Positions 1,791 through 50,897 of a stretch of 64,000 bases of DNA are shown piece by piece. The stretch is from Sandaracinaceae bacterium (lineage in GTDB: Bacteria > Myxococcota_A > Polyangia > Polyangiales > Sandaracinaceae): contig JAHBWG010000049.1 of assembly GCA_019637095.1 (NCBI GenBank), forward strand, positions 1 to 64,000, written 5' to 3'. Each line of letters opens with the position of its first letter. The stretch's first letter is position 1. The notes below the pieces were generated by a model. That model was not told the DNA's origin and made no database searches. It saw nothing but the letters and a program-made list of their open reading frames with translations. A program made the position numbers and the translations under genes.

Positions 1791-3583
1791 GGCCGCCTGC
1801 ACCGCCAGTCCCCCGCGCCCGCGCTCGACTCCGCGCAGCCGAGGCCGTCGTCGCAGTCGTTGTTGTAGTCGCACTCGCCGCCCTCGGGCACCGCGGTGCA
1901 GCGCTCGGTCGACATGTCACAGGTCATCCGCCCGCAGCAGTCCGCCGCGGTTCGGCAGCGCACGCCGCGATCGACGCAGCACGAGTGCGTCCCCGCGCGC
2001 AGCGCCCGCGCGCAGCGCAGCGCGCCGCAGCAGGCGTTGGCGTCGGGGCGCATCACCGTCGGATCACACGTCTCGGTCTCGCGCCGGCACCCCATCCCGT
2101 CCTGACAGGAGCCGGCGAGGCAGATGTCGCCATCGCAACACTCGATGTCGCGATCGCACAGCCCCGCGCGCTCGATGCACTGGCACTCGTTGTCGCGGCA
2201 GAGCATCCGTCCACAGCAATCCTCGTTGCTGTCGCACGAGGTGCTGCCGCCGGCGCAGCACTGCCGCACCGGGGGCGCCGTCGGCTCGGTCCGCGTCTCG
2301 CTGCACGAGAGCCCCGAGCAGCACTCGGTCGAGACCATGCACGCCTCGCGCTCGTCCTTGCACATCATCATCGTCGGCGTCGGGCGGCACATGAAGGTCT
2401 GGCACGTGCTGCCCTCGCAGCACTCGCTCGAGTCGAGGCAGAACGAGCCGTCGCGCCCGCACGCGCACTGCCCGTCGCCACCGCAGAACATCAGGCCGCA
2501 GCAGTCGAGCGAGTTCTCGCACGAGCCGCCCTGCCCCATGCAGCACCGCGGGATGAGGGGCGCCGGCCGGCACACCGAGCCCGCGCAGCACTGCTGCCCG
2601 GGCAGCAGGCCCCCGAGCAGGCACGTGAGGCTCGGGCCGCGGCAGTCCGTGCAGTTGCCGAACTGACAGTGGAACGAGCCCTCGCACGCGCCGCTCGAGC
2701 CGCCGAGGTCGCAGCACATCTGTCCGTCGCGGCCGCAGTCGCCCGGCGGCGTCTCGCACAGGCCGCCGGCCTCCGTGCGCCGATCGCACACGAGCCCCGG
2801 ATCGCACGTCCCGCGCGGGCCGCACGGGGCGCCCATGAAGCCCGAGTCGTCGGGCCGCAGGCAGGTGCCGCCGCGGCACACGAGCGCGCCGGAGCAGTCG
2901 GTCGGCGAGCCGCCGGCGCCCGGACAACACGGCCGGTCGATCTCGCCGCACGCCATCGACGGATCCGCGTTCACGCACGTCGCGGTCGTCACGTCGCACG
3001 CGAGCGAGCGCGACGTGCACGGGCTCGATCCGTCGCAGCAGCGGTCGCCCATCCCGCCGCAGCGCGTGCACATCCCCTCGACGCACACCGCCTCGTCGCG
3101 GCAGGTGAAGCCCGCGCAGCACCGCTGGCCCGGGCGGCCGCACGTGTCCGGCATCGCGTCGACGTCGCCGGGCGCCGAGCACACGCCGGCAGAGCAGATG
3201 AGCCCGTCGCAGCAGTCGGACGAGCCCGAGCAGCTCGCGGTGCGCGGCGCGCAGCAGCGGCTCGCCTGGCACGCGAGCCCGCGACAGCAGTCCGAGGCCG
3301 CGTCACACGACGCGCCCGAGCCCGCGGCGACGCAGCACACGTCACCGCGCCCGCACTCGAGGCCCAGCTCGCAGATGCGCCCGGGATTGCAGCAGTCTCC
3401 GCCGGCCGTGCCGCACGGGCCGCTCCCGGGCGGCACCATCCCGTCGCGCCCGGGCACCGTCCCGTCCGGCAGCGAGCCGTCCATCCCGGCGACCGAGCCG
3501 TCGGGGCTGCCTCCCGGGTTGTCCGCACAGCCCGCCACGCCCGAGAGGGCCGCCGCGAGCAAGCAAGCGCGCAGGTACTGCAT
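1787..3583 (-). CDS. Cysteine-rich repeat lipoprotein
   Basis: This 598-residue exported protein begins MQYLRACLLAAALSGVAGCAD, a signal peptide ending in a lipobox (VAGC). An Asp/Gly/Pro-rich linker follows. The rest, about residues 45-590, is a chain of short cysteine modules. A typical unit has a Cys, four to six residues, Ser-Asp-Cys-Cys, a residue, Gly-Leu-x-Cys, then a closing Cys or Cys-Cys. About twenty Cys-Cys pairs can be counted. The spacing resembles knottin or Dickkopf-like disulfide modules, but no catalytic motif is visible. Such proteins are common, and uncharacterised, on myxobacterial cell surfaces. It lies 83 bp behind the FecR gene and overlaps proC by 4 bp, so it may belong to the sigma/FecR operon. 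The ATG at 3583 is chosen because it directly precedes the signal peptide. Confidence 0.8.
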   Translation of the reverse strand: MQYLRACLLAAALSGVAGCADNPGGSPDGSVAGMDGSLPDGTVPGRDGMVPPGSGPCGTAGGDCCNPGRICELGLECGRGDVCCVAAGSGASCDAASDCCRGLACQASRCCAPRTASCSGSSDCCDGLICSAGVCSAPGDVDAMPDTCGRPGQRCCAGFTCRDEAVCVEGMCTRCGGMGDRCCDGSSPCTSRSLACDVTTATCVNADPSMACGEIDRPCCPGAGGSPTDCSGALVCRGGTCLRPDDSGFMGAPCGPRGTCDPGLVCDRRTEAGGLCETPPGDCGRDGQMCCDLGGSSGACEGSFHCQFGNCTDCRGPSLTCLLGGLLPGQQCCAGSVCRPAPLIPRCCMGQGGSCENSLDCCGLMFCGGDGQCACGRDGSFCLDSSECCEGSTCQTFMCRPTPTMMMCKDEREACMVSTECCSGLSCSETRTEPTAPPVRQCCAGGSTSCDSNEDCCGRMLCRDNECQCIERAGLCDRDIECCDGDICLAGSCQDGMGCRRETETCDPTVMRPDANACCGALRCARALRAGTHSCCVDRGVRCRTAADCCGRMTCDMSTERCTAVPEGGECDYNNDCDDGLGCAESSAGAGDWRCRRP

Positions 3584-3666
3584 GCGCCCGATCCTAGCAG
3601 GCCCGGGCCCGTGTCCGCAGCCTGCTCCCGCGAGCCGTTGCCCGCCGTCGCGACGCGAGCGTCCTT

Positions 3667-5121
3667 TCACTGCCCCGCGTACGCGCGCATCGCGTCCGCG
3701 TCGGCGCCGTCGGGGAACGCGCGCACGTACTCGGCCGCGACCGACGCGGCCTCCTCGCGCCGACCGAGGCGCGACAGGAGCTGCACCTCGAGCGCGAGCC
3801 CGCGCTCGCGCAGCACCGAGCGCGGCGCCGCGACGCCCGCGGCGCGCAGCGCGCGCAGCGCGCCCGCCGGATCGCCGAGCTCGCCCGCGCGCAACCGCGC
3901 CTCGAGGAACCCCGCCTGCTGCCGGCGCGGCGCCGGCAGCGCCTGCGCGGCGCGCCCGTACGCCTCGGCCGCGTCCTCGAGTCGGCCGAGCGCGCGGAGG
4001 GCGTCCGCCTCGACCATACGCCACGCCTCCCCGCGGCCCTGCGCGAGCGCCTCGCTCGCGAGCGCGAGCGCGTCGGCGGCGCCTCCGCGCGCGATCAGCG
4101 CGCGCGCGCTCGTCGGGGTCGGCGCGGGGATCGCTTCCAGAGCCGGCTCCGGTGCCTGCTCTGGTGCCTGCTCTGGCGCCGTCGCTTCGCGCGACCGCTC
4201 GCCGCGCGGGCCGCGGGCCGCCTCGGGCGACGGAGCGAGCGCGAGCGGCTCGCGCCGCGCGACCTCGGGTCCCGCCTCGTCCCCGTCCTCTGCGCTCGCG
4301 ATCGGTCCCGGCGCGCGGCGCGCCGCCGCCGCCTCGCGCCCCTCGTCGGCGAGCGCGTCCTCGCCGATCTCACCGGCCCCGAGGTGCGCGACCTCGCCGG
4401 CCTCGACGACGCGCGCGCGCCCTTCCCCGCGCACGCGCACCGCGCCCTCGTAGACCCAGACCGTCGTCGCGCCCTCCGCGGCGCGCACGCTGAACACGGT
4501 GCCGAGCACCTCGACCTCCGCGTTCGGCGTCGTGACGTGGAAGCGCCCGCGCTCGATGCGGCGGACGTCGAAGAGCATCGACCCGCCGCCCAGCCGCACG
4601 CGGCGCACGCGCGGCTCCTCGAGCGCCACATCGAAGCGCGCGCCGGACGCGGCCATCAGCCGATCGCCGGTCGGCAGATCGAGCCCCGTGGGCTCGACGG
4701 CGTCGCTCGGCGCGCGCTCCTCGCGCGGCTCGAGCGGGCTCGCGGGCGGCGCGGGCTCGCTCGCGCCGCGCTCCGCGACGGGCGCCGGCGCCTCACCGGG
4801 ATCGAGCACCGCGAGGGTCACCGCCGCCGCCGCGCCCATCGCCGCGAGCGCCGCGACGCCGCTCACGCGCCACAGCGTCCAGCGCCGGTGCCGCGCCCCG
4901 CCCGTCACCGCCGCGTGCTGCACGAGCGCGCGGAGCTCGCGCTCCGTCAGCGCGTCCGGCTCCGCGCCCTGCGCCGAGGCGAGCAGGCCGTCGAGCGCCG
5001 CGCCGCGCGGCGCCGCGCTCCGTCGGCGCGCCTCGGCGACGAGCGCGTCCGTCGCCCCGTCGTCGAGGGCGGCCGGCGCCGCGTCGCGCGCCGCGTCGAG
5101 GAGCCGATCGAGCTCACTCAT
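3667..5121 (-). CDS. FecR-like membrane regulator with C-terminal TPR-like region (putative anti-sigma factor)
   Basis: The product is about 484 residues. Residues 1-80 are helical and probably cytoplasmic. One transmembrane segment follows near residues 82-105 (VSGVAALAAMGAAAAVTLAVL). A FecR domain spans about residues 150-240 and includes RFHVTTPNAEVEVLGTVFSV and VWVYEGAVRV. After a low-complexity linker, the last 140 residues look like TPR helices. FecR domains typically sit in the periplasm and transmit signals to a partner ECF sigma factor. The sigma gene lies directly upstream and overlaps this one by 8 bp (5114-5121), which supports a sigma/anti-sigma pair. The ATG at 5121 has a GGAGG ribosome site six bases ahead. 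A GTG two codons upstream is less well placed. Confidence 0.8.
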   Translation of the reverse strand: MSELDRLLDAARDAAPAALDDGATDALVAEARRRSAAPRGAALDGLLASAQGAEPDALTERELRALVQHAAVTGGARHRRWTLWRVSGVAALAAMGAAAAVTLAVLDPGEAPAPVAERGASEPAPPASPLEPREERAPSDAVEPTGLDLPTGDRLMAASGARFDVALEEPRVRRVRLGGGSMLFDVRRIERGRFHVTTPNAEVEVLGTVFSVRAAEGATTVWVYEGAVRVRGEGRARVVEAGEVAHLGAGEIGEDALADEGREAAAARRAPGPIASAEDGDEAGPEVARREPLALAPSPEAARGPRGERSREATAPEQAPEQAPEPALEAIPAPTPTSARALIARGGAADALALASEALAQGRGEAWRMVEADALRALGRLEDAAEAYGRAAQALPAPRRQQAGFLEARLRAGELGDPAGALRALRAAGVAAPRSVLRERGLALEVQLLSRLGRREEAASVAAEYVRAFPDGADADAMRAYAGQ

Positions 5122-36627: not shown

Positions 36628-37506
36628 TCAACCGCGCTCGGCGGCGAGCAGCGCGTCGCGGCGCCGCGCGAACGCGGCGGCGAGCCGCCGGGTGACGAGG
36701 CCGGGCCGCCCGTCACCGATCACCGCGCCGTCCGCGCGCACGACGGGGACGACCTCGCGCAGGCTGCTCGTGATGAACGCCTCGTCCGCGCCGTAGAGGT
36801 CCGGGGGGAACAGCAGGCGCTCCTCGACCTCGACGCCCCCCTCGCGGGCCGCCTCCATCACCACCCGGCGCGTGATCCCTTCGAGGATGCCGACGCCGAG
36901 CGGAGGCGTCGCGACGCGGCCGCCGCGCACGAGGAAGACGTTGCTCGTCGCGCCCTCGAGCAGCTCGCCGCCCGGTCCGACGCTGAGCGCCTCGTAGCCC
37001 CCACGGGCGCGGGCGGCCGCGAGCGCGAGGATGTTGGGGAGGTAGTTCGACGCCTTGGCGCCCGCGGCTCCGGTTCCGTCGAGCGCGCGCGCGCTCATCA
37101 CCGTCGCGAGCTCGACGCCGTCCTCGTAGAGCGCGGCGGGCTGCTCCGTGAGCGGCAGGACGACCACGACACGGCGCGGGGTCTCGCCGCGACCGACCCC
37201 GAGGCCGATGTCGGTGATCCCGCGCGTGACGATGACGCGCACGTAGGACTCCTCGTTCGCCGCCGCGCCGAGCGCGACCGCGATCTCGGGCCGCAGGGCC
37301 GCCCCGAGCCCGGTCGCCGGGATCCCGAGGCGCTCGCAAGAGCGCTCGAGCCGATCGAGGTGGGCGCCGAGCGCGAACGGCTGTCCGCCGTACGTCCGCG
37401 TCACCTCGAAGGCGCTGTCGCCGTAGAGGAACCCACGGTCCATGACGGGCACCGAGGCGAGCTCCGGCGCGACGAGGGCGCCGTCGATGCAGACGCTCGC
37501 GCCCAC
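36628..37506 (-). CDS. Class IV aminotransferase (branched-chain aminotransferase / aminodeoxychorismate lyase type)
   Basis: The 292-residue PLP enzyme has MDRGFLYGDSAFEVTRTYGGQPFALGAHLDRLERS, the PLP lysine in GAKASNYLPNILALAAARARG, EGATSNVFLVRGG, GILEGITRRVVMEAAREGG and DEAFITSSLREVVPV. These fit both IlvE-like transaminases and PabC lyases. At this length, and with the residues after the lysine, the two cannot be separated by eye. The start at 37506 is six bases behind the stop of the giant TPR gene, so the two are probably one transcript, an unexpected pairing. Confidence 0.85.
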   Translation of the reverse strand: MGASVCIDGALVAPELASVPVMDRGFLYGDSAFEVTRTYGGQPFALGAHLDRLERSCERLGIPATGLGAALRPEIAVALGAAANEESYVRVIVTRGITDIGLGVGRGETPRRVVVVLPLTEQPAALYEDGVELATVMSARALDGTGAAGAKASNYLPNILALAAARARGGYEALSVGPGGELLEGATSNVFLVRGGRVATPPLGVGILEGITRRVVMEAAREGGVEVEERLLFPPDLYGADEAFITSSLREVVPVVRADGAVIGDGRPGLVTRRLAAAFARRRDALLAAERG

Positions 37507-37512
37507 GTCGCC

Positions 37513-40500
37513 TCAGCCCTTGAGCTGCGCGAGCAGCGCCGCCGCCGCCTCGTGGTTGGCGTCCTCCGCCTTCGCGCGCTCGAGCATGGAGATCGCCTTG
37601 CGGGCGTCGCCGGCGCGCGCGGAGATGTCCCCGAGGTAGTAGTAGACGTCCGCCTTGGTGATCCCGGCGTCGTCCGAGAGCTTCTGCAGGAGCAGCGCCC
37701 GGAAGGTCTTCTGAGCACGATCCATGTCGCCGCGGACCATGCACAGCCGCCCGAGATCGCGCAGCACCACGACGTTGGTGAGGTCGACCTTGAACGCCGC
37801 GTCGTAGGACTCCATCGCGCCGTCGAGGTCGCCCATCGACTCCTTCGCGCGGCCGAGGCGGTGGTGGTACACGGCCACCTCCTTGTTCCGGCGCGCCCCG
37901 TAGCTCGCGACGATCTGCTCGAGCACGGGGATCGCGTCGCCCTGCCGCCCTGCCGCGATGTAGAGATCGCAGAGCGGCAGGAGCACGTCGCGGTCCTCGG
38001 GGTCGAGCTGCGCGGCCCGCTCGAGGTATTGCGCCGCCGAGCCCGGGTCGGACAGCGGCCCGGAGTAGAGGTCGGCGATGCGCTTGAGGAGCTTCACCTT
38101 CTCCGCCGGCGCCTCGGTCTCCTCCTCGTCCATCGCGAGCATCATCGCGAGCTGGTCGGGCTGCTCGTTCTTCTCGTAGTGCGCCTTGAGCCGCTCGCGG
38201 CTCTCGCGGCTCCCGCCCGACAGCTCGTAGGCCCGGCGGAGCGCCGCCTCCGCGCGGGCGGCGTCGCCGAGGCGCTCCGCCGCGAGCTCGGCGGCCTCGT
38301 ACGCGGTCGCGACGGCTTCGTCGTCCGCCTGCGCCGCGCCGAGCCGCTCGAGCACGCCGAGCGCGGCCTCCCAGTCCTCGCCGCCGCGGTGGATCGCGAG
38401 CAGCGCGCCGAGCGCCGCGACGTGGTGGGGGTCGTGCTCGAGCACGCGCTCGTAGATCTCGACCGCGCGCGCCGGGTCGCCGCGGCGCTCCGCCTCGACC
38501 ACGGCGAGGCGCAGCAAGAGCGCGAGCCCCTCGCCCTCGCCGGCAGCGTGCTCGATGCGCCGCTCGAGCAGCGCGACGAGCTCGTCCCACTCCTCACCGC
38601 TCGTGTGCAAGCGCTCGAGCTCGTCGAGCGCCTCCGCGTTGTTCGCGTCCTCCTCGAGGATCTCGCGGAGCTGCTCGATCGCGTCGTCGCGCCGCCCGAA
38701 GCGCGACTCGGCGAGCCGCGCCAGCCGCACGCGCGCGGCGATGCTCTCCTCGGGCGTGCGCGCGATCTCGAGGCGCCGCTCGACGAGGGCCTCGAGATCG
38801 CTCCAGCGCTCGGCGCCCTCGTAGAGCACCTCGAGCGCGCCGATCGCGTCGAGATCCTCCGGCGCCTCGTCGAGCGCCCCCTGCCACGCGGAGATGGCGT
38901 CGGTCACGCGCTCGAGCGCGGCGTAGGTCCCCGCGAGCTGCTTGCGCAACCCGAGCCGCACGCCGGGATCCATCTCGACCTCGACGCGCGTCTCGAGCAG
39001 ATCGCACACGCGCTCGTGGTTGCCCGCGCCGGCCTCGAGCCGCACGAGCTGGTCGAGGGCGAGCGGGTGGCCCGAGTCGACCTCGAGCACCTTCTCGTAG
39101 CACCGGATCGCGAGCGAGGGCTCGTGGAACGCGGACTCGGCGAGCGCCGCGGCCTCGATGAGCCGCGCCTTCTTCGCGTCTTCGTCGTAGTCCACGTCCG
39201 CCCAGTGGACGAGCGCCGCGACGAGCGCCTTCTCGCGGCCGGCGACGCGCAAGAGCTCGACGAGCTGCTCGTGGGCCTCCGACGCGTCCTGGTCCGCCGC
39301 GATGGCGCCGCGGTAGCGCGCCTCCGCCGCCTCGACGTCGTCGAGGGCGTCGCGGTACCAGCGCGCCGCGCGCAGGTTCAGGTCGCGCACGAGCATCCCG
39401 TCGAAGTCCTCGCCGCCCGCCTCGAGGACCTTCTCGATCAGGCCGCGCAGGCTCCCCCAGCCGCCGTCGGCGAGGGGCGCGAGCCGCTCGAGATCCGACG
39501 CGAGCTGCTCGTCGCGCGGATCCATCTCGAAGGCTCGGCGCAGCGCCTCGAGCGCGCGCGTCGCGTCGCCGAGCTCCGTCTCGAGCACCTGCGCCTGATC
39601 CTGGAGGAACCGCACGCGCTCACCGTCCGTCTCGGCCAGGCCGATGCGCACGTCGTAGAGCGCGGCGATCTTCTCGGTCGCCCCCGTCTCGCGGTAGACG
39701 GGCTCGAGCACCTCGACGACGTCCGCCGCGAGCGTGTCGTCCTCGAGGAGCGCCTCCATCGCGCTCACCGCGCGCCGCTCCGTCGGGTCTCGGTCGAGCA
39801 CCTCGCTGAACGCGCGGAACGCGCCCGCGAGGTCGCCGAACTGCTCCTGCTTGAGCGCGCCGACGCGAACGAGCAGCTCGCTGCGCTCCGCCGGATCCAT
39901 CGCCGCCGCGACGCGGCGCTCGAGGATCTCGCCGAGCTCCGGCCAGGCCTGCAGCTTGGTGTAGAGCCGATCGAGCGCGGCCAGCGCCGCCTCGTCGTCG
40001 CCCGCTTGCTCGATGGCGCGCGTGTACGCCTCGACCGCGCGCGCGTCGTCGCCGAGGTGCGCCTCCGCGATCGCCGCGAGGCGCCCGTAGAGCGCGCGCG
40101 CCACCTCGGGCTCGAGGACCGACGACGCGCGCGACGCGAAGGCGTCCGCCGCGCGATCCCAGCGCCCCAGCTCGGCCGCGAGCCGCTCGATGTCGTCCGC
40201 CGTCGCCTCGTCGGACGCGTCCTCGCCGAGCGCGCGCACGTACGCGTCGAACGCCGCGGCCCGGTCGCCGCGGCCGCGCTCGTGCACCTCGGCGAGGCGG
40301 CGCAGGCCCAGGCGCTTGTCCTCGGGGTCGTAGGCCGCCTGCGCCTTCCCCGCGAGCACCTCGGCGAGCTCGTCCCACCGCGCCTGCGACTCGAGGAGCG
40401 GCTCGACGATCTCGGCGGCCGGCTCGCGGTAGTCGTCGAGCCGCCCGATGCGCAGGAGCGCCTGGATCGCGGGCTCGAACGCGGGATCGAGAGAGAGCAC

Positions 40501-43500
40501 GTCCTGATAGGTGGAGAGCGCCGTCAAGACGTCGTCCATCTCGCGCTCGAGGACCTCACCCGCCCGGTAGAGCAGGCGCACGCGCGCCGCGACGTCCTCC
40601 TGCATCCCCGCCTGCAGCCGCAGGTTCTCGAGCAGGTCGGGCCACTGCGCCTCGCGCTCGTAGAGCCGGGCGAGCGCCTCGATCGCGGTCAGCTGATTCG
40701 GGTCGTCGTCGAGCGCGCGCTGGTAGGCGTCGATCGCCTCGTGCGGCTGTCGGAGGTGGACCTCGTTCAGGTGACCGAAGCGGAGCGCGAGCGCGACGCG
40801 GGTCTCCGGATCCTGCTCGGCCTCGAGCCGGCGGCGCAGGACGTCCGCGAGCTGCGCGTGGTCGGCCGCCGCTTCGTAGAGCCGGTCGAGGGCCTCGAGC
40901 GCGTACTCGTCCGTCTCGTCCTCCGCGAGCGCGGCGCGGTACGCCTCGATGGCGCCCGCCGGATCGCTCAGCAGCTCCTCGAGGACCGAGCCAGCGCGCT
41001 GGAGCAGCTCGCCGCGCTCCTGCGGATCGTACGAGCGCTCGACCTTGCGTCGGAGCACCGCGACGAGCCCGCGCCAGTCGCCGACCATGGTGTGGAGCGA
41101 CTCGAGCGCGTCGAGCGGCGTCGGGTCGTCGGGCTCGACCTCGAGCAGGCGCTCGTAGGTCTCGATGGCGGAGCGCGGATCGCCGCGCATCTCGTCGTGG
41201 ACGCGCGCGACCTGCGTGAGCAGCTCGGCCTTGACCGCGGGATCCTCGGCCGACTTGAGCGCCTCCTCGTACGCGGCGACGTGCGAGTCCCACGTGCCGA
41301 GCTCCTGCGCGAGCCGGTCGACCTGGCCGCGCACCTCCTGGTCGTCGGGCTGCGCGGCCAAGGCGCGCGCGTACGCGTGGAACGCGAGCTGGCGGTCGCC
41401 CGCGCGCTCCTCGTGGAGCTCCGCGATCATCGAGAGCAGCCGGACTCGATCGAACGTCTCGTCGGTGGTGGCCACGCGCGCTTCGTAGATCGCGATGCGT
41501 TTGCGCCACTGATCGGTCGCGCGGTAGATGGGCTCGAGGATCTCGATGATGCGCGCCTGGTGCTCGGGCGCCTGCACGAGCTGCTCGAGCGCGGTCACCG
41601 TCTCGACGTGGTGCGGATCGACCTGGGTGACCTCCTCGAAGACGTCGATGGCGCCCGACGCGTCCTCGAGGCGATCGAGCAGGACGCGCCCGAGCCGCAG
41701 CTTCAGGTCGCTCGCGATCGGCTCGTCGCCCCACAGCTCGATCTGGTGGCGCAGGTGGTCGGCGAGCTCCGCCCAGCGCTCTTGGCGGACGAGCAGCTCG
41801 TCGAGCGCCGCGATCGCGTTGGCGTCCTGGCCGTCGATCATGAGGATGTCGCGCTGCGCCTCGATGGCGCGGTCCGGCTGCTCGAGCTCCTCCTCGAGCA
41901 GCCTCGCGCTCTTGCGCAGGAACGCGATGCGCTCCTCGTCGGACTCGGCCGCGTCCGACTGCTCGCGGTAGAGCCGCAGGAGATCGTCCCAGGCGCTCTG
42001 GCGCTGGTACACGGACTCGAGCGCGATGAACGCGTCGTGGTTCGACGGGTCGAACCGGAGCGCGCGCGCGTACTGAGGCGCGGCCTTCGCGAGATCGCCG
42101 ACGCGCTCGTCGTAGAGCTGTCCGGTGAGGAGCGCGAGCCGCGCGGTGTCCTCGTCGTCGCCGCCGATCTCCTCCAGCACGTCGCGGTAGATCTCGGCGA
42201 GCCGATCCCAGCGCTCGAGCACGCGCGCGAGGCGCGAGAGCGTCTCCCAGGTCGACGCGTCGCGCGGGTCCTCGCGGAACAGCCGCGCGTACGACTCGAG
42301 CGCGCCGTCGAGGTCCTCGAGGTAGTCCTCGTGGATCTGGCCGAGGCGGGTGAGGTGGGCCTTGCGCTCCTCGAGATCGGTCTCGGCGGCGAGCCGCGCC
42401 TCGATGCACGCGGTGACCCGCGGCCAGTCCATGCGCTGGAGGAACACGGGCTCGAGGATCTCGGCGGCGCTCGCGCGGTGCTCCTCGTCCTCCATCAAGC
42501 GCTCGAGCGCGTCGATGGTCGGCTGGTGCGAGACGTCCAGGTCGCGCGCCTCGCGGAACTGCTCGATCGCGCTCCACGGATCCTCGAGCCGCTCGAGCTG
42601 CGTCTTGCCGAGCCGGTAGCGCACCTCGACGGGCTCGCCGACGCCGTGCTCGAGCATCCGCTCGTAGTGCGAAGCGAGCTCGTTGTAGCGCTCCGCGCGC
42701 GCGTAGAGGCGCTCGAGCCCGTCGTACGCGGAGCGCGGCTGCGTCTCCGCGAGCGCCTGCTCGAGGCAGTCGATCGCGTTGGCGAGCTCGCCGGTGTGCT
42801 TCTCGCCGATCTCGGCGCGACGCAGCAAGAGCGGGGCGCGCGCCTCCGGGGTCTCGGCGAGGTCCGTCTTGCGCCGCAGCACGTCGAGCAACGCGGGGTA
42901 GTCGCCGGCGGCGTCCGTGAGCGCCTCGAGCGCGTCGAGCGCCCCCGTGTGATCGGGGCGCGTCTCGATCACGTTCTCGTAGTAGGCGCGGGCGAGCGCG
43001 GCGTCCCCGAGCCGCTCGCGGGCGACCTCGGCGACCTCGGCGTACACCTCGACCTGCAGGTCCGCGTCCATCACGTCGGGCCCCACCTCGCGCAGGAGCG
43101 CGACGTAGTCGGCCCAGCGCGCGCTGTCGCGCGCGAAGCGGCCGAGCTCGCGGAGCATGTCGCCGAGGTCGTCCTCGGCGAGCCCGGCGCGGATCGCGCG
43201 CCCCTGGAGCTCGAACGAGCGGCTCGCGTCCTGCAGGCCGAGATCGGCCACCTCCGCCGCGCGGCGCAGCGACTGGTAGCGCTCGAGCGGATCCTCGCTC
43301 TCGGCGCGCACGAGCAGGGCCTCGAGCAGCGCGGGGTAATCGGCGCGCGCCTCGTAGTGCGGCACGAGCACGCGCGCGGCCTCGATGCGCACCTCGATCG
43401 GCAGCGCCGGCGGGGGCGGCGGCACGCTGGCCGCCGGCGCCTCTTCGCCCTCCGCCAGCGTGTCGCGGCCGCCCTCGTCGGCGGGCGCGCTGCCGTCGGA

Positions 43501-46500
43501 GCTCATCACCTCGCGCAGCGACTCGATCGCGCCCTCGTGGTCGGGAACGAGCTCGAGCACCTCCCCGTACGCCTCGACCGCGCGCTCCACCTCGCCGAGG
43601 TAGCCGCGCATGATCTCGGCCATCTGGTAGCGGACGGCCGCGCGCACGGGGGCGCGCTCCGCCATCTCGAAGACCATCTCGGCGACCTGCAGCAGGTCGT
43701 TCCAGCGCTCGGCCTGCTCGTAGAGCCGCGAGAGCGCCCCGAGCGTCTCGGTGTCCGTCCCGAAGCGGGAGAGCACGTCGTTGTACGCCGCGATCGCCTG
43801 GTCCGAGTCCTCGAGGTGCTCCTCGTAGATCGCGCCGACGCGCCGCGCGATCGCGCGCTGCTCGTCGGGGTCGGTGACCGCCGCGTCGCGCGCGCGCAGG
43901 ACCTCGATGAGATCGGTCCACGCGGACGTCTGCTCGAGCAGCCGCTCGAGCGCGCTCATCGCGTCGAGATCGCCGGGATCGATCTCGAGCCGCTCCCGGT
44001 GCGCGGCGATCGCGCCGGGCACGTCACCCAAGAGCTCCTCGCGCAGATCGGCGAGGCGCACGAGCAGCCGGCCGCGCGTGTCCGGGTCCGTCTCGAGGCG
44101 CACCTGCAGCGCGAGATCCTCGCCGAGCGCGGCGTGGTCGCCCTTGGCGAGGTGGATGCGCTCGAGCGCGCGCGCCGCCTCGAGCAGCAGCTCGGGCTCG
44201 TCCGGGCCCGCGGCGATGAGCCGGCGATACGCCGCCTCCGCGGGCCCGGGCTCGCCGACCGCCTCGTCCCACACCTGCGCGAGCTCGAGGAGCAGCTCGC
44301 ACACGAGCGCCCCGTCGCCCTCGCTCTTGGCGATGGCCTTCTCGAGCACCGCCGCCCGCTCTCGCTCCGCGTCGCGCATGCGCGCGAGCCGCGCGAGCTC
44401 CTCGCGGACGAGGGACTCCGCGGGATCGATCTCGACCGCCGCGGCGATCGAGCGGAACGCCGCCGCCGGATCGTGGAGGCGATCCTCCTCGAGGCCGGAG
44501 ATGCGCGTGAGCAGCGCCACGCGATCGGGCACCGCCTCGAGCTCTTCGAGCTGCACCCGCAGCGTCTGGACGAGCTCGGGCCAGTCCCCCCGGTCCTCGT
44601 AGATCGGCGCGAGGAGGCGGGCGCAGCGCTGCCGCTCCGAGGGCACCGAGATCAGCCGCTCGAGCGCCTCGCGCGCGTGGCGGTGGCTCGGCTCGCGCTC
44701 GAGCACCTGCTCGTAGCAGTCGACCGCCGCCGAGGGACGGCCGAGCCGCTTCTCGTGCAGCACGCCGAGGCGCTGCGTCAAGCCGACTTGCTCGTCCGGG
44801 TTGGCGCGATCGAGCTCCTCGCGCAGGAGGCCCACGAGGTCCTCCCAGCGCCCGGTGCGCTCGTACAGCCGCTCGAGCGCGCGCCGCGACGCCGAGTGCT
44901 CCGGATCGAGCTCGAGCACCTGCCGGTGCGCGCTGATCGCCGCCTCGGCGTCGTCGGTGAGCTCCTCGAACAGGAAGCAGACCTGCAGGAGCAGGTCGAG
45001 CTTCGCGCCGGCGTCCATCGTCTCGGCGATGCGGCGGTCGTAGAGGACCTGGAGCTCGGACCAGCGCTCCGCGTTGGTGTAGAGGTCCTTGAGCGCCCCG
45101 AACGCGGCCTCGTCGAGCGGATCGTTCGCGAGCACCTTGCGGTAGAACGGCTCCGCGTCGTCGGGACGGCCGAGGACCACGTCGTAGAGGTGCGCGACCT
45201 TCGCGGCGAGGGCCGACTGATCCGCCGGCTCGAGCGCGCCCATCGCGGAGCTGAAGGCGGCCGCGAGGGCCTCGTGCTCGTCCGCCGCCTCGGCCGCCTC
45301 GATCACGCGATCCTGGAGATCGACGTTCGCCGGGTCGGCGAGGAACGCCGCCTCGAGCGCGCCGTACGCCGCCTTCGCGTCGCCGATCGTGCCGGCGAGC
45401 TCCGCGTATCGGACGCGCAGCGCGCGCTGCTCGTCGGGATCTTCGGTCGCGGCGAGCCGCTGCTCGAGGATGCCGGTGAGCTTCTCGTACTGCCCCGTCG
45501 CCTCGTAGACGCGCTCGAGCACGAGCCGCGCGTCGGCGGCGAGCGCTTCGTGGCCCACGAGCGCCTCGAGGCCCGCGACCGCCCTCCCCTCGTTCGGGTG
45601 CGTCTCGACGACCTCGGCGAACGCGATGAGCGCGCCGGCCGGATCCCCGAGCGGGCCGGCGAGCGTCTCACCGAGGCGCAGCGTGAGGGCCGCGCGCTCG
45701 GCGTCGTCCTGCGCGAGCCCGCGCCGCCGCTCGATCACCGCCGCGACCTCTTCCCAACGCTCGCCCGCGACGCAGAGCCGATCGAGCGCGGCGAGCGCCT
45801 CGCGATCCGACGCGTCCTCGTCGAGCACCTGGCGGTAGCGCGCGGCGGCGCTCTCGGCGTCGCCGAGGGCCTCCTCCTCGACGCGCGCGAGGTCGAGCAG
45901 GTATTCGCGCCGCGTGGCCTCGTCCGGCGCGTGGCTCACCCGCGACAGGAGCAGCCCGCGCAGCTCTCGGTGCGCGCCCTCGCCGCGGTAGATCCGCGCG
46001 AGCGCGTCCGCCGCCTCGGTGTCGTCGGGCTGCGCGTCGAGCAGCGCGCGGAGCTGCGCGACCGCCTGATCGGTCCGCCCGAGCCGCTCGCCCGCGAGCG
46101 AGGCGACGCGCCGGCGCAGCCACGCGCGCTCCTGCTCCGCGCCGACCTCGTCCTCGATCCGCGCGAGCCGCGCGAGGTAGACCTCGACGAGCGCCTCGTG
46201 GCGCCCGGCCGCGTTCGCCGCCTGCTCGAGGGCGGCGCGCGTGTCGGGATCCGTCGGCGCGATCGCGAACGCGCGCGCGGAGTACTCGTAGGCCGCGCCG
46301 TCGTCGCTCAGGCGCGTGGTCGCGAGCCGCCGCAGGGTCGCGAGGAGCTCGAGGCGCGCCGCGTCGTCCTGCGCGCGGCGAAGCAGCACCTCGTGGAGCG
46401 CGGGCAGCCGGTTGTGCTTTCCTTCGCCTTCGTAGATCGGGATCAGCGCGCGCGCGGCCCGCTCGTTGTCCGGGTCGGCGGCGAGGACGCGCTCGTAGGC

Positions 46501-48804
46501 CCGGAACGCGCGGTTCCGGGACTGGAGCTCGTTCTCGTAGATCTCGGCGGCGCGGAAGCTGAGCTGGATCTTGGTGGCGTCGTCCTTCGCGCGATCCGCG
46601 ACGTTGCCGAGCACGTCGACGAGGCCCTCGTAGTCCCCCGCCTCGGCGTAGAGCGCCTCGAGGCCCTCGAAGTCGCTGGCCGCGAGGAACGTCTCGCGCA
46701 GCGTGCGCAGCGCGCGCCCGTTCTTCGGATCGAGGTCGAGGATGCGCTTCCACGCGCTCGCCGCGCGGAGCGTGTCCTCGAGGTGCTCGCCGTAGATCAC
46801 GCCGAGCTTCGGCAGCAGCTTGAGCTGCTCGGCGGGATCCGACGCCGCCTCGTCCACGCGCCGCTCGAGGACCTCCGCGAGCGTGCTCCAGTCCTTCTCG
46901 CGCTCCGCCAGCTTCTGCAGGTTGTCGAGCGCGTCGGGGTGCTCCGGCGCCTGCTCGAGGATCTCCTTCCAGATCTGGATCGCGTCCGCGTGCCGGTGCA
47001 GGCGCTTGCCCGCGAGATCGGCGAGCTCGAGCTTGTGCTCGAGGCGCGCGGTGGGGTCGCTCGCGAGCCGCGCCTCCTTGAGGAGCACCTCGTAGAGGTG
47101 CGTCCACGCCCGCTTCTTCGTGTAGATGTCCTTGAGCGCCTTGAGCGCGCGGCGGTTCTCCGGCTCGAGCGCGATCACCTGCTCGAGCGGCTGCGTCGCC
47201 TGGTTGTAGTTGGCGAACCGCTCGATCCAGAGATCCGCGACGCGCAGGTAGAGCTCGACCCGCTCGACGGGATCGCTCGCCGCGTCGGCCTGCTTGGTGA
47301 GCACGCCGATGAGATCGTTCCAGCGCCCGGTGGCCTCGTAGGTCTTCGCGAGGGCCCCGATCGCCTCGTGATCGCTGGGGTCGAGCTGGAGGATCGCGTT
47401 GTAGGTGTTGATCACCATCACGTCGAGCCCGAGTCGGTCTCGATAGACGGGCAACAGCTCGCGCAGCAGCGCGACCTTGCGGGCGGGCTCGTCCTCGGGG
47501 ACCGCGTCGACCTCCGCCTTGAGCACCTCGACGAGCGCGTTCCACTTCTCGCTGCGCTCGTAGAGCCCGCGCAGCTCGCGCGGCGCCTGCGCGTTCTTCG
47601 GGTCGTGCCGCAGGACCGTCTTCCACGCGTCGATCGCGCGCTCGTCCTGGCCCGCGAGCGTCGCGGCCTCGGCGAGCTCGATCGCGAGCGCGAGCCGCTG
47701 GTCGTCGCCCGACGCGCCGCGCTGCGCGTCGGTGAGGATCTTGACGAGCTGCTGCGGGTCCTCGTCGTCGGCGTAGTAGGCGCGATAGAAGTCGAGCATC
47801 CCCGGGTGGCCCGGGTCCATCTTGCGCAGGCGCGCGAAGTACGGCTCCGCCTCGGCGGGAGACTCGCGGAAGCGCCAGTGCACCATCCCGAGCTGCAGGA
47901 GCACGCCCGCCTCGTCGTCGAGCTTGTTGCGCGCGCGCAGCGCGTCCTCGTAGAGCGCGACGAGCCGATCCCAGTCCTGCGCCTCCATGTAGTGGCCCAC
48001 GAGCCAGCTCAGCGAGCGCGCGTGGTTGGGATGCAGCTCGAGGATCCGCTCGTAGGTCGCGGCCGCGCGCGCGCGGTCGCCGAGCGCCTTCGCGAGCACA
48101 CGCGCCGCGCGCACGAGGAGCTGGACCTTCTCCTCGCGCTCCGCCGCCCCGTCGGCGGCCTGCAGCAGGACGGTCGCGAGCTCCTCCCACTTCTCGCGCG
48201 CGCTGAGCACCTGCGCGTAGAGCCTCGCGGCGCGCGCGTCCCCTCGCGCCGCCTCGAGCGCCGCGCGGAAGAGCGCGTCGACCTGCTTGTCGCGGCCGCG
48301 GCCCTTGTACTTCCACACGAGGCTCGCCGCGCTCACGAGCAGCGAGCTGCGCAGCGTCGGGTCGCTCGCGCTGTCCGCCTCGTCGAGGAAGCGCTTGACG
48401 ATGTCGCCCCACTTCGCGGCGGTCTGATCGATCTGCGCGATCTGGTCGGCGAGGTCGTCGTCCCCCGGCCGCAGCGCCAGCGCCGCCTCGAACGCCTCCT
48501 TGGCGGCGGCGTCGTCGAGGAGTTCCTCGCGGCGGACGCGACCGAGCTCCTCGTAGAAGGTCGCGGCGCGATCGGGATCCGCGCTCGCCGACAACTTCGC
48601 TTGCACTTCGAGGATCTTCGCGACCGCGCGGTACTCCGCGCGCGCGTCGTGGCCGTGTCGCGCGAGCTCGAGGAGGCGCTCCGCCTCGGCGTCGAGCGCG
48701 ACCGCCCCGTTCTCTGCGAGCGCCCCGATGGCCGAGAGGGCCTCGAGGTTGTCGGGGTCCTCTTGAAGCGTGCCGAGTAGGTGCGAGACGTTTTGGGACG
48801 CCAT
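37513..48804 (-). CDS. Giant tetratricopeptide-repeat protein (3763 aa)
   Basis: This single frame of 11.3 kb has no signal peptide or membrane helix. From about residue 40 to the end it is built of a helical unit that recurs roughly every 72 residues, about fifty times. Each unit runs from a Trp-x-x-Leu start (WNDLIGVL, WTHLYEVL, WSTLAEVL) through a variable helix. It continues to L-G-x-hydrophobic-x-E-x-x-L, then D-x-x-x-A-I-x-A-Y/W-x-x-hydrophobic-L, a D/E-P turn and A-L-x-x-L. This is two TPR-like hairpins per unit, so the chain should form a very long superhelix that serves as a protein scaffold. Its partners are unknown. The ATG at 48804 has AGGGAG ahead; a GTG one codon upstream is possible. 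The aminotransferase gene follows after 6 bp. Confidence 0.9.
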   Translation of the reverse strand: MASQNVSHLLGTLQEDPDNLEALSAIGALAENGAVALDAEAERLLELARHGHDARAEYRAVAKILEVQAKLSASADPDRAATFYEELGRVRREELLDDAAAKEAFEAALALRPGDDDLADQIAQIDQTAAKWGDIVKRFLDEADSASDPTLRSSLLVSAASLVWKYKGRGRDKQVDALFRAALEAARGDARAARLYAQVLSAREKWEELATVLLQAADGAAEREEKVQLLVRAARVLAKALGDRARAAATYERILELHPNHARSLSWLVGHYMEAQDWDRLVALYEDALRARNKLDDEAGVLLQLGMVHWRFRESPAEAEPYFARLRKMDPGHPGMLDFYRAYYADDEDPQQLVKILTDAQRGASGDDQRLALAIELAEAATLAGQDERAIDAWKTVLRHDPKNAQAPRELRGLYERSEKWNALVEVLKAEVDAVPEDEPARKVALLRELLPVYRDRLGLDVMVINTYNAILQLDPSDHEAIGALAKTYEATGRWNDLIGVLTKQADAASDPVERVELYLRVADLWIERFANYNQATQPLEQVIALEPENRRALKALKDIYTKKRAWTHLYEVLLKEARLASDPTARLEHKLELADLAGKRLHRHADAIQIWKEILEQAPEHPDALDNLQKLAEREKDWSTLAEVLERRVDEAASDPAEQLKLLPKLGVIYGEHLEDTLRAASAWKRILDLDPKNGRALRTLRETFLAASDFEGLEALYAEAGDYEGLVDVLGNVADRAKDDATKIQLSFRAAEIYENELQSRNRAFRAYERVLAADPDNERAARALIPIYEGEGKHNRLPALHEVLLRRAQDDAARLELLATLRRLATTRLSDDGAAYEYSARAFAIAPTDPDTRAALEQAANAAGRHEALVEVYLARLARIEDEVGAEQERAWLRRRVASLAGERLGRTDQAVAQLRALLDAQPDDTEAADALARIYRGEGAHRELRGLLLSRVSHAPDEATRREYLLDLARVEEEALGDAESAAARYRQVLDEDASDREALAALDRLCVAGERWEEVAAVIERRRGLAQDDAERAALTLRLGETLAGPLGDPAGALIAFAEVVETHPNEGRAVAGLEALVGHEALAADARLVLERVYEATGQYEKLTGILEQRLAATEDPDEQRALRVRYAELAGTIGDAKAAYGALEAAFLADPANVDLQDRVIEAAEAADEHEALAAAFSSAMGALEPADQSALAAKVAHLYDVVLGRPDDAEPFYRKVLANDPLDEAAFGALKDLYTNAERWSELQVLYDRRIAETMDAGAKLDLLLQVCFLFEELTDDAEAAISAHRQVLELDPEHSASRRALERLYERTGRWEDLVGLLREELDRANPDEQVGLTQRLGVLHEKRLGRPSAAVDCYEQVLEREPSHRHAREALERLISVPSERQRCARLLAPIYEDRGDWPELVQTLRVQLEELEAVPDRVALLTRISGLEEDRLHDPAAAFRSIAAAVEIDPAESLVREELARLARMRDAERERAAVLEKAIAKSEGDGALVCELLLELAQVWDEAVGEPGPAEAAYRRLIAAGPDEPELLLEAARALERIHLAKGDHAALGEDLALQVRLETDPDTRGRLLVRLADLREELLGDVPGAIAAHRERLEIDPGDLDAMSALERLLEQTSAWTDLIEVLRARDAAVTDPDEQRAIARRVGAIYEEHLEDSDQAIAAYNDVLSRFGTDTETLGALSRLYEQAERWNDLLQVAEMVFEMAERAPVRAAVRYQMAEIMRGYLGEVERAVEAYGEVLELVPDHEGAIESLREVMSSDGSAPADEGGRDTLAEGEEAPAASVPPPPPALPIEVRIEAARVLVPHYEARADYPALLEALLVRAESEDPLERYQSLRRAAEVADLGLQDASRSFELQGRAIRAGLAEDDLGDMLRELGRFARDSARWADYVALLREVGPDVMDADLQVEVYAEVAEVARERLGDAALARAYYENVIETRPDHTGALDALEALTDAAGDYPALLDVLRRKTDLAETPEARAPLLLRRAEIGEKHTGELANAIDCLEQALAETQPRSAYDGLERLYARAERYNELASHYERMLEHGVGEPVEVRYRLGKTQLERLEDPWSAIEQFREARDLDVSHQPTIDALERLMEDEEHRASAAEILEPVFLQRMDWPRVTACIEARLAAETDLEERKAHLTRLGQIHEDYLEDLDGALESYARLFREDPRDASTWETLSRLARVLERWDRLAEIYRDVLEEIGGDDEDTARLALLTGQLYDERVGDLAKAAPQYARALRFDPSNHDAFIALESVYQRQSAWDDLLRLYREQSDAAESDEERIAFLRKSARLLEEELEQPDRAIEAQRDILMIDGQDANAIAALDELLVRQERWAELADHLRHQIELWGDEPIASDLKLRLGRVLLDRLEDASGAIDVFEEVTQVDPHHVETVTALEQLVQAPEHQARIIEILEPIYRATDQWRKRIAIYEARVATTDETFDRVRLLSMIAELHEERAGDRQLAFHAYARALAAQPDDQEVRGQVDRLAQELGTWDSHVAAYEEALKSAEDPAVKAELLTQVARVHDEMRGDPRSAIETYERLLEVEPDDPTPLDALESLHTMVGDWRGLVAVLRRKVERSYDPQERGELLQRAGSVLEELLSDPAGAIEAYRAALAEDETDEYALEALDRLYEAAADHAQLADVLRRRLEAEQDPETRVALALRFGHLNEVHLRQPHEAIDAYQRALDDDPNQLTAIEALARLYEREAQWPDLLENLRLQAGMQEDVAARVRLLYRAGEVLEREMDDVLTALSTYQDVLSLDPAFEPAIQALLRIGRLDDYREPAAEIVEPLLESQARWDELAEVLAGKAQAAYDPEDKRLGLRRLAEVHERGRGDRAAAFDAYVRALGEDASDEATADDIERLAAELGRWDRAADAFASRASSVLEPEVARALYGRLAAIAEAHLGDDARAVEAYTRAIEQAGDDEAALAALDRLYTKLQAWPELGEILERRVAAAMDPAERSELLVRVGALKQEQFGDLAGAFRAFSEVLDRDPTERRAVSAMEALLEDDTLAADVVEVLEPVYRETGATEKIAALYDVRIGLAETDGERVRFLQDQAQVLETELGDATRALEALRRAFEMDPRDEQLASDLERLAPLADGGWGSLRGLIEKVLEAGGEDFDGMLVRDLNLRAARWYRDALDDVEAAEARYRGAIAADQDASEAHEQLVELLRVAGREKALVAALVHWADVDYDEDAKKARLIEAAALAESAFHEPSLAIRCYEKVLEVDSGHPLALDQLVRLEAGAGNHERVCDLLETRVEVEMDPGVRLGLRKQLAGTYAALERVTDAISAWQGALDEAPEDLDAIGALEVLYEGAERWSDLEALVERRLEIARTPEESIAARVRLARLAESRFGRRDDAIEQLREILEEDANNAEALDELERLHTSGEEWDELVALLERRIEHAAGEGEGLALLLRLAVVEAERRGDPARAVEIYERVLEHDPHHVAALGALLAIHRGGEDWEAALGVLERLGAAQADDEAVATAYEAAELAAERLGDAARAEAALRRAYELSGGSRESRERLKAHYEKNEQPDQLAMMLAMDEEETEAPAEKVKLLKRIADLYSGPLSDPGSAAQYLERAAQLDPEDRDVLLPLCDLYIAAGRQGDAIPVLEQIVASYGARRNKEVAVYHHRLGRAKESMGDLDGAMESYDAAFKVDLTNVVVLRDLGRLCMVRGDMDRAQKTFRALLLQKLSDDAGITKADVYYYLGDISARAGDARKAISMLERAKAEDANHEAAAALLAQLKG

Positions 48805-48914
48805 CACTCTCCCTGAAACCGATTCCCCGAAGCGGCGGGCGCCGATCGGATGGGAACGCCAAAAAAGCCAGCGACTCCAAGCAGTTGAACGAGACCAACC
48901 CCCGAAGGGCCCCG

Positions 48915-48944: not shown

Positions 48945-49044
48945 GCGCCGTCTTTCGCGGACCTTTCAGCGCAACGGAATCACACGCGGAATGGCGACGG
49001 CGTGACTCCCTGCGCCGGTGGGCTTACATCTCGCGCGTCCGCCG

Positions 49045-49782
49045 ATGCGCCCGTCCCGCCGCACGCTCCTCGGCCGCTTCGCGGGCGTCGCGCTCGCGTG
49101 CCTCGCCGCCGCCTCGCCGGCGCGCGCGCAGTCGCTCGCGCACTCGTACGAGACCTGGCTCGCGTTGTTCGCGCACGGCCCGCTCGCCGGCGACCTCTGG
49201 CTCTGGGTCGACGTCCAGCCGCGGCTCTACGAGCGCCTCGAGCCCCAGGCGGTGCTCGTGCGCCCCGGCCTCTCCTGGCGCGTCACGCCCGAGCTCTTCC
49301 TCACCGCGGGCTACGCGTGGACGCCGAGCTGGAGCCGCGGGAGCGACGAGGAGCGGGGCTGGGGCGAGCTCGACTTCGTCGACGAGCACCGGAGCTGGCA
49401 GCAGGGCCTCTACGCGGTGACCGATCCGGCGAGCGGGCTCGCCGGCCAGGTGCGCGTGCGCCTCGAGCAGCGCGCCCGCACGACGGGCGAGCCCGACGTC
49501 GGCGTACGGCTGCGCGTCTTCGCGCGCGGCCAGGTGCCGATGACGCACGCGCGCGACGTGCTCGTCGTGCTCTGGAACGAGTCCTTCGTCGCGCTCAACG
49601 ACACGAGCTGGGGCCAGCGCGGGGGCTTCGATCAGAACCGGCTCTTCGCCGGGCTCGGCTGGCAGGTGATCGCCGGCCAGCTCCGGCTCGAGCTCGGCTA
49701 CCTCAACCGGTGGAGCGTCCGGCCGGGCGTCGACCCCGTCGTACACGCCGCCGCGCTCAACGCGTTCGTCGCGTGGCGGTAG
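49045..49782 (+). CDS. DUF2490-like outer membrane protein
   Basis: The 245-residue protein has a signal peptide with twin arginines (SRRTLLGRFAGVALACLAAASPARAQ), which could be a Tat or a Sec signal. The mature part has barrel-type strands: LWLWVDVQPRLYERLEPQAVLVRPGLSWRVTPELFLTAGYAW, EHRSWQQGLYAV, RVRLEQRART and ENRLFAGLGWQ-like segments near the end (QNRLFAGLGWQVIAGQLRLELGYLNRW). The Trp/Arg pattern and length fit DUF2490, a family of uncharacterised outer membrane proteins. The ATG at 49045 is chosen because the signal peptide starts there. It diverges from the giant TPR gene, with a 240-bp spacer. Confidence 0.75.
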   Translation: MRPSRRTLLGRFAGVALACLAAASPARAQSLAHSYETWLALFAHGPLAGDLWLWVDVQPRLYERLEPQAVLVRPGLSWRVTPELFLTAGYAWTPSWSRGSDEERGWGELDFVDEHRSWQQGLYAVTDPASGLAGQVRVRLEQRARTTGEPDVGVRLRVFARGQVPMTHARDVLVVLWNESFVALNDTSWGQRGGFDQNRLFAGLGWQVIAGQLRLELGYLNRWSVRPGVDPVVHAAALNAFVAWR

Positions 49783-50108: not shown

Positions 50109-50897
50109 TCAGAACAGCATGATCGCGCCGGCCGCCGTGAGCAGGCCGAACGTCGTGAGGCCGACGACCTGGTGCACCGTGGCGAGCGCCTGGAGCGCCG
50201 CGAAGTCGTTGGCGCGGTCGAGCCCGAACCAGTCCTGCGAGATCGCGAGGCCGAGGAACAGCTGCGCCAGCATCCCGCCGAGGTGCGCCCAGCGGAGCAC
50301 CTTGTGCAGGCGCAGGTTGCTCGCGTACGCGCCGTCGCCTTGGTCGAGGTGATCGGGGTCGGGCATCGCGAGCGAGATCGTGAACGTCGTCGTGTAGAGC
50401 GCGGTCGTCGCGATCCACGACGCGCGGTGGACCCACGGCTCGCCCCAGCACTGCTCCTGGCCGAAGATCGCGTCGCCGCGCACGCAGCCCGAGTCCTCGA
50501 CGCCGCCGAAGAACCCGTAGAGGTTGTAGTACTGGAACATCCCGAGGGTGACCGTCGCGAGCATCGAGACCCACGTCGCGATCCCGAACGCGCGGTGCAC
50601 GGGCATCAGGTCGGCGCGCTGCCGGAGCTGCGCGGCGTACTCGTCGTTGGAGGTCTCGGCGGTCTGCCGAGGGGTGGGCACGGGCGCGGGCTCGGCACGC
50701 CGCGTCTGGACGGCGGGCGCCTCCTCGTCGGCGCCGGCGCCGTCGTCGCCCGCGTCGTCCTCTGCCGCGTCGGCGAGCTGAGCGAAGACCGGCGGGAAGA
50801 GGATCGCACCGGGCGGCGCGGCGAGGTCGCCGGGCGGCGGGGTGAGCGCGAAGCCGAAGATGGGCGTGGCGAGCGCGAGCGCGGCGAGCGGCGTCAT
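50109..50897 (-). CDS. Polytopic membrane protein with intramembrane histidines (cytochrome b561-like?)
   Basis: The 262-residue protein has an N-terminal signal-like segment and a Pro/Ala/acidic region to about residue 85. At least four hydrophobic helices follow. Histidines recur at helix ends or inside them: MPVHRAFGIATW, EPWVHRASWIATTALY, RLHKVLRWAHLGGMLAQLFLGLA and ATVHQVVGLTTFGLL. Such spacing can hold b-type haems, so a b561-like electron carrier is possible, but the family was not recognised. A Cys pair (GCVRG and QCWG) lies in a loop. The five-hairpin repeat follows the stop. Confidence 0.6.
   Translation of the reverse strand: MTPLAALALATPIFGFALTPPPGDLAAPPGAILFPPVFAQLADAAEDDAGDDGAGADEEAPAVQTRRAEPAPVPTPRQTAETSNDEYAAQLRQRADLMPVHRAFGIATWVSMLATVTLGMFQYYNLYGFFGGVEDSGCVRGDAIFGQEQCWGEPWVHRASWIATTALYTTTFTISLAMPDPDHLDQGDGAYASNLRLHKVLRWAHLGGMLAQLFLGLAISQDWFGLDRANDFAALQALATVHQVVGLTTFGLLTAAGAIMLF

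What the first reader, a model, noticed from the sequence alone, without database searches (positions are those of the whole stretch)
37513..48804. 3763-residue protein made almost only of ~72-residue double-TPR units
About fifty units run without interruption, which predicts a superhelix far longer than ordinary TPR scaffolds. Two successive spacings measured between the leading Trp residues were both exactly 72. No enzymatic, membrane or signal segment was seen, so it may be a cytoplasmic ruler or assembly scaffold. Its only operon partner is a class IV aminotransferase.
Basis: partly seen in the sequence, partly recalled or inferred. Interest (0 to 1): 0.6.

Follow-up and report, generated by a model that had tools for sequence, protein, structure and literature searches.

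The report
Giant TPR scaffold, sister of GltI
The gene encodes a real 3,763-residue cytoplasmic protein built from 47 helical TPR double-repeats; it belongs to an apparently unstudied family found across two major groups of myxobacteria and is a sister of the giant gliding-motor scaffold GltI, and its repeat number and spacing have hardly changed between distant relatives, which suggests that its length matters.

Summary
A minus-strand ORF (ATG 48804, stop 37513) encodes 3,763 residues with a clear 72-residue period, 47 complete double-TPR units, no signal peptide and no membrane segment. AlphaFold models of two overlapping stretches that together span residues 1900-3763 are all-helical TPR solenoid (mean pLDDT 91 and 92). 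'Without interruption' is wrong: eight inserts of about 17 residues, mostly one extra helix, break the array at fixed points (9 | 5-4-5-4-4-5-3 | 8 units). A window-only 31-residue Pro-rich linker lies at one of them, and three distinct TPRs cap the C-terminus.

The protein is not unique. Co-linear relatives at 36-69% identity occur throughout the order (Polyangiales) and in other Myxococcota. Across 39 named orthologs only 1.4% of aligned positions (residues 301-3760) are gaps, so no unit was gained or lost. The same genome has a second giant TPR protein (3,359 aa) inside a gliding gltD-E-F-G-like cluster, i.e. GltI/AgmK. A tree puts GltI-like and window-like proteins on two sides of one branch (99% SH-aLRT), so the duplication is old.

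Most likely this is a cytoplasmic, fixed-length scaffold paralogous to GltI. Its partner is unknown. The aminotransferase is a conserved neighbour of unproven relevance.

The parts
37513..48807 (-). Giant TPR gene; 3,763 aa from ATG 48804 (residue r starts at base 48804-3(r-1)); 419 kDa, pI 4.7
37981..48645 (-). 47 complete ~72-residue double-TPR units (residues 54-3608)
   Evidence: TPR fold of residues 1900-3763 modelled
45997..47508 (-). N-terminal anchor (residues 433-936), co-linear with residues 20-476 of GltI-like proteins; among the best conserved stretches
46651..46698 (-). Insert 1 (residues 703-718), conserved position, sequence unlike the other inserts; not within the modelled stretches
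45508..45570 (-). Half-unit insert 2 (residues 1079-1099)
44602..44661 (-). Half-unit insert 3 (residues 1382-1401)
43396..43488 (-). Pro-rich linker (residues 1773-1803), absent from 97-100% of orthologs
43357..43395 (-). Half-unit insert 4 (residues 1804-1816), next to the linker
42436..42504 (-). Half-unit insert 5 (residues 2101-2123; AAEILEPVFLQRMDW), extra helix in the model
41527..41586 (-). Half-unit insert 6 (residues 2407-2426), extra helix in the model
40393..40455 (-). Half-unit insert 7 (residues 2784-2804), extra helix in the model
39697..39756 (-). Half-unit insert 8 (residues 3017-3036), extra helix in both models
37516..37980 (-). C-terminal cap of canonical TPRs (residues 3609-3763, RAQKTFRALLLQKL), the most conserved part of the family
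36628..37506 (-). Class IV aminotransferase (PabC/D-amino-acid/branched-chain-like, exact substrate unresolved), 6 bp downstream, conserved neighbour

Best explanation
A cytoplasmic giant TPR solenoid that works as a fixed-length assembly scaffold. It is the founding-duplication sister of GltI/AgmK, the giant TPR scaffold of the myxobacterial gliding motor, and is not GltI itself. Shown here: the TPR fold; 47 ordered, individually conserved units; half-unit inserts at conserved positions (9 | 5-4-5-4-4-5-3 | 8 units); conserved end regions; paralogy to GltI. Inferred: the two conserved ends (residues ~430-800 and the C-terminal TPR cap) bind different partners; the solenoid between them holds those partners at a set distance or offers an ordered row of sites; the inserts, one per 3-5 double units (roughly one TPR superhelical turn), set local curvature or dock partners. 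The partner is unknown. By analogy with GltI, which is described as coupling Agl motors to the MreB-associated track, an inner-membrane or cytoskeletal machine is the first guess.
For: TPR fold: Pfam; AlphaFold mean pLDDT 92.1 and 90.9, all helices, for residues 2950-3763 and 1900-3045; best PDB fold matches are TPR scaffolds Ctr9, Ski3, IFT-A TPR subunit, OGT, and the profile matches consensus TPR designs. Fixed architecture: mean gap fraction 1.4% over residues 301-3760 in 39 named orthologs; 44-46 of 47 units are reciprocal best and all in order for L041, L043, L049; insert spacing 380-305-380-310-305-379-232 recurs from Polyangiales to Myxococcaceae-like genomes and at fixed distances from the C-terminus in 61 proteins. 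Paralogy: residues 433-936 and 3313-3672 are co-linear with GltI-like 20-476 and 2340-2698; one-branch split from GltI, 99% SH-aLRT. GltI assignment: the second giant sits after gltD/E/F/G-like genes including an FHA+TonB_C protein (gene set as in PMC3169522). GltI as intracellular scaffold: PMC13104615. No signal or TM segment.
Against: No partner is identified, and the neighbours are housekeeping enzymes rather than an envelope or motor operon. Global model shape is uncertain (pTM 0.40-0.54), so length and curvature are not measured, and residues 1-1899 were not modelled. Some lineages show no clear ortholog while keeping GltI (G010, G030), so it is not essential everywhere. Fixed unit number could reflect lack of recombination between diverged units rather than selection on length.
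Confidence: 0.55

Rival explanations
1. It is the gliding-motor protein GltI/AgmK of this organism.
For: Same size class, same repeat type, co-linear anchors, shared first part of the insert pattern 5-4-5.
Against: The same genome has another giant TPR gene in the gltD-E-F-G-like cluster; the Myxococcaceae-like genome G134 also has both; the tree separates them with 99% support; the insert patterns differ (5-4-5-3 versus 5-4-5-4-4-5-3) and so does the C-terminus.
Confidence: 0.05
2. A second cytoplasmic scaffold of the same gliding or trans-envelope machinery (both giant TPR proteins act in one Agl/Glt-type machine).
For: Old paralogs with a shared N-terminal anchor, co-present in most Polyangia and in Myxococcaceae-like genomes.
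Against: No Glt-type genes near the window family in any locus read; some genomes keep GltI without a detected window-type protein (G010, G030). No mutant evidence is known to me.
Confidence: 0.2
3. A scaffold for lipid or envelope biosynthesis (LapB-like idea: TPR protein organising enzymes at the inner membrane).
For: The next codirectional gene is a DUF374 acyltransferase in many Polyangia (L148, L163 and others) and a PS decarboxylase in Myxococcaceae-like genomes (L153, L157). LapB is among the better solved-structure profile matches.
Against: Neighbourhood only; in the window itself the neighbour is an aminotransferase; the LapB match is generic TPR.
Confidence: 0.15
4. A scaffold or regulator for the co-transcribed class IV aminotransferase (metabolic complex).
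For: 53 of 70 loci carry the aminotransferase within 2.6 kb downstream, 51 codirectional; only 1-4 such genes per genome in nearly all genomes checked; a divergent class IV aminotransferase also lies upstream in Myxococcaceae-like genomes.
Against: The Myxococcaceae-like neighbour is a different subclade; other lineages have no aminotransferase nearby; a 419-kDa protein for one small enzyme is implausible.
Confidence: 0.05
5. Assembly artefact or a freely expanding repeat array with no length constraint.
For: Repetitive protein in a fragmented assembly.
Against: Longest exact repeat 19 bp, units 51% identical on average at DNA level; the same unit number and order in dozens of independent genomes, one of them a single 10.3-Mb contig.
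Confidence: 0.01

Closest known systems
GltI/AgmK (MXAN_4863), giant TPR scaffold of the Myxococcus gliding machinery
   Same: Size, 72-residue double-TPR units, +17-residue inserts in a shared 5-4-5 pattern, co-linear N-terminal and near-C-terminal regions, no signal or TM segment.
   Different: Separate clade; different insert pattern after the third block; different C-terminus (TPR cap instead of GltI's own C-terminal region); not in a glt cluster; longer N-terminus than the Polyangiales GltI-like proteins.
Eukaryotic TPR scaffolds Ctr9, Ski3/TTC37, IFT-A TPR subunit, OGT
   Same: Long TPR superhelix used as assembly scaffold (fold matches).
   Different: Far shorter, unrelated by sequence beyond TPR consensus.
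LapB and other bacterial TPR proteins (MamA, BcsC, PilW)
   Same: TPR fold; weak profile matches.
   Different: Short or membrane/periplasmic; no co-linear homology.

Membership tests
TPR (tetratricopeptide repeat) superfamily | 34-residue helix-turn-helix repeats with TPR consensus, antiparallel helix pairs | tested here: met
   Pfam TPR families; consensus positions; models; fold matches
GltI/AgmK | Encoded in the gltD-E-F-G-H-I(-J) gliding cluster | tested here: not met
   Window neighbours are an aminotransferase and a DUF2490 gene; the glt-like cluster with its own giant lies on contig C90
GltI/AgmK | Groups with cluster-borne GltI-like proteins in a tree | tested here: not met
   GltI-like proteins are one clade (99%), window protein outside it
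GltI/AgmK | Giant cytoplasmic TPR protein without signal or TM segment | tested here: met
   GltI data in PMC3169522
GltI/AgmK | Insert pattern of GltI (5-4-5-3 units) | tested here: not met
   window family 5-4-5-4-4-5-3
GltI/AgmK | Needed for gliding, binds the Agl/Glt machinery | not testable with these tools
   needs a mutant and pull-down
Class IV aminotransferase (neighbour gene) | Aminotran_4 domain; specific subtype | tested here: inconclusive
   PF01063 E = 1.6e-52, but no NCBIfam subtype reaches its cut-off

The most novel reading that the evidence does not exclude
The protein is a genetically fixed molecular ruler: a giant solenoid whose number of units and evenly spaced extra helices were set before the two main myxobacterial lineages split and have been kept since, so that it positions partners at a defined distance inside the cell, in a machine not yet described and separate from the gliding motor.
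Probability: 0.2. Interest if true: 0.75.

Novelty: new variant of a known kind. Interest (0 to 1): 0.45.

Why it matters
Two giant TPR families with distinct, conserved repeat layouts exist side by side across a phylum; only one (GltI) appears in the literature I could search. The second family gives a ready test of whether very long TPR solenoids act as rulers: whole blocks between inserts can be deleted cleanly. It also means that annotators or BLAST users may mistake one paralog for the other when tracing the origin of gliding motility.

Tried and rejected
First named-genome scan with the N-terminal 267 residues found nothing; the scan with the C-terminal alignment worked. Assembly artefact rejected. 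GltI identity rejected. Idea that the aminotransferase link is ancient and phylum-wide: not supported, since the neighbour in the Myxococcaceae-like genomes belongs to another subclade. The antisense plus-strand ORF 37360-48780 (3,806 aa) was considered and rejected as a mirror of the codon bias. NCBIfam equivalog hits such as PrsT and MamA are sums of generic TPR scores over many repeats, not family membership. The viral structure library gave only generic TPR/Sel1 matches. Literature searches found no paper on a second giant TPR family, but the library lacks most subscription journals.

Full report
What is in the window. The minus-strand ORF is real and as described: 3,763 residues from ATG 48804, stop at 37513, with uniform coding statistics over its length. 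Self-comparison gives one dominant period of 72 residues (6.3 sd), and many Trp-Trp distances are exactly 72. Pfam finds TPR families only. An iterated unit profile finds 47 complete units from residue 54 to 3608, plus partial matches in a C-terminal region made of ordinary TPRs. Composition is acidic (pI 4.7, 419 kDa), with no hydrophobic segment able to span a membrane and no signal peptide visible at the N-terminus.

Spacing between units is 68-77 residues except at eight points. At seven of them about 17 extra residues recur, with a related motif (AAEILEPVYxxxxDW). The first insert (703-718) has a conserved position but a different sequence. In the AlphaFold model of residues 1900-3045, each of the four inserts it covers is one extra helix following a shortened helix; the last of these is also seen in the C-terminal model. 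The inserts divide the array into 9 | 5-4-5-4-4-5-3 | 8 units. At one insert the window protein alone carries a 31-residue Pro-rich linker (residues 1773-1803).

Relatives. The 800 N-terminal residues match all 38 genomes searched from the family and order; matches over most of the query lie in ORFs usually 3,750-3,900 residues long. Full-length alignment to genomes of the order gives 36-69% identity over ~3,700 residues. In a named collection, 80 loci from Sandaracinaceae, Polyangiaceae and other myxobacterial metagenome-assembled genomes carry the C-terminal region. Across 39 of those, the mean gap fraction over residues 301-3760 is 1.4%. For L041, L043 and L049, 44-46 of 47 units are reciprocal best matches in the same order. 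The insert spacing is retained in genomes of another class and in Myxococcaceae-like genomes (L153: 376-314-378-310-314-381-233). The repeat array is therefore an old, fixed object and not an expanding repeat. The most conserved parts are residues ~290-800 and the last ~155 residues.

Relation to GltI. The same genome has a second giant TPR gene on contig C90 (3,359 aa), preceded by genes matching the sizes and domains of gltD, gltE, gltF and gltG (FHA plus TonB_C) of the Myxococcus gliding cluster (PMC3169522). Genome G134, with a 9-Mb genome in a different class, has both kinds, the glt-cluster one and a separate one. Sliding profiles show that residues 433-936 and 3313-3672 of the window family are co-linear with residues 20-476 and 2340-2698 of the GltI-like proteins. 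The tree of the shared anchor puts the two kinds on two sides of one branch with 99% SH-aLRT support. GltI-like proteins show an insert pattern 5-4-5-3, which looks like the window pattern without a 4-4-5 or 5-4-4 segment. So the window protein is a paralog of GltI, not GltI. The GltI label rests on gene-cluster synteny, because the M. xanthus sequence itself was not at hand.

Structure. AlphaFold gives all-helical TPR solenoids with mean pLDDT 92.1 (residues 2950-3763) and 90.9 (residues 1900-3045). Local structure is confident, the overall curve is not (pTM 0.54 and 0.40). Residues 1-1899 were not modelled; for them the TPR assignment rests on Pfam and the unit profile. Foldseek against the PDB returns Ctr9, Ski3, IFT-A and OGT TPR scaffolds. 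From the known geometry of consensus TPRs (about 8 TPRs per turn, my own knowledge), one 4-unit block is about one superhelical turn, so the inserts come about once a turn; this is inference.

Neighbours. The class IV aminotransferase starts 6 bp downstream. In 70 named loci with enough downstream sequence it lies within 2.6 kb in 53, codirectional in 51; a DUF374 acyltransferase is found in 18, 11 of them together with the aminotransferase (DUF374 identified). Nearly all genomes checked have only 1-4 such aminotransferase genes (one had none above threshold). Myxococcaceae-like genomes have a divergent class IV aminotransferase upstream and a PS decarboxylase directly downstream, but that aminotransferase is from another subclade. 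I read this as conserved synteny of uncertain meaning.

Mechanism. Shown: TPR fold, fixed number and order of units, conserved inserts, conserved ends, paralogy to a known motor scaffold. Inferred: cytoplasmic location, scaffold role, distance-setting, two-ended binding. GltI is described as a large scaffold that, with GltG, couples Agl motors to the MreB-associated track (PMC13104615), and AgmK was reported in a complex binding FrzCD (PMC3447774). A similar role for this paralog, with a different cargo, is the best guess.

Verdict. Observation confirmed with corrections; scaffold reading plausible; size not unprecedented because of GltI. Interest is moderate: a giant paralog family with a strikingly fixed layout, for which no functional study was found.

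Noticed in passing
37360-48780 (+): An open frame of 3,806 codons runs antisense over the whole giant gene; it follows from the codon bias (GC3 ~0.96) and is not a gene.
   Followed up: yes
43396-43488 (residues 1773-1803): Pro-rich, low-complexity linker present only in the window protein among the orthologs aligned, placed exactly at a conserved insert.
   Followed up: partly
L061:8585-19005 and L062 (G000 contig C90): Own-genome gliding-type cluster (gltD/E/F/G-like, a 290-aa TPR protein, giant GltI-like 3,359 aa) followed by carB instead of gltJ.
   Followed up: partly
L153:6633-7529, L157:6968-7816: In Myxococcaceae-like genomes a PS decarboxylase gene follows the giant gene directly; in many Polyangia a DUF374 acyltransferase does (L148, L163). 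Phospholipid enzymes recur as next gene.
   Followed up: partly
50109-50897 (-): Conserved ~250-aa gene often directly upstream and codirectional in relatives (L041, L043, L044, L053-L055); only a weak Cytochrom_B561 match. In the window a DUF2490 gene (49018-49782, +) sits between.
   Followed up: partly
L069 (G010), L072 and GltI-like loci: GltI-like proteins of most Polyangiales lack the ~460 N-terminal residues that the f12 family (L065, L070) and the Myxococcaceae-like genome (L155) retain, suggesting an N-terminal loss in GltI.
   Followed up: partly
G000 contigs C110, C132, C149, C162: Several further large TPR reading frames (open frames of 1,800-2,650 aa) match the window protein weakly in the same genome.
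   Followed up: no
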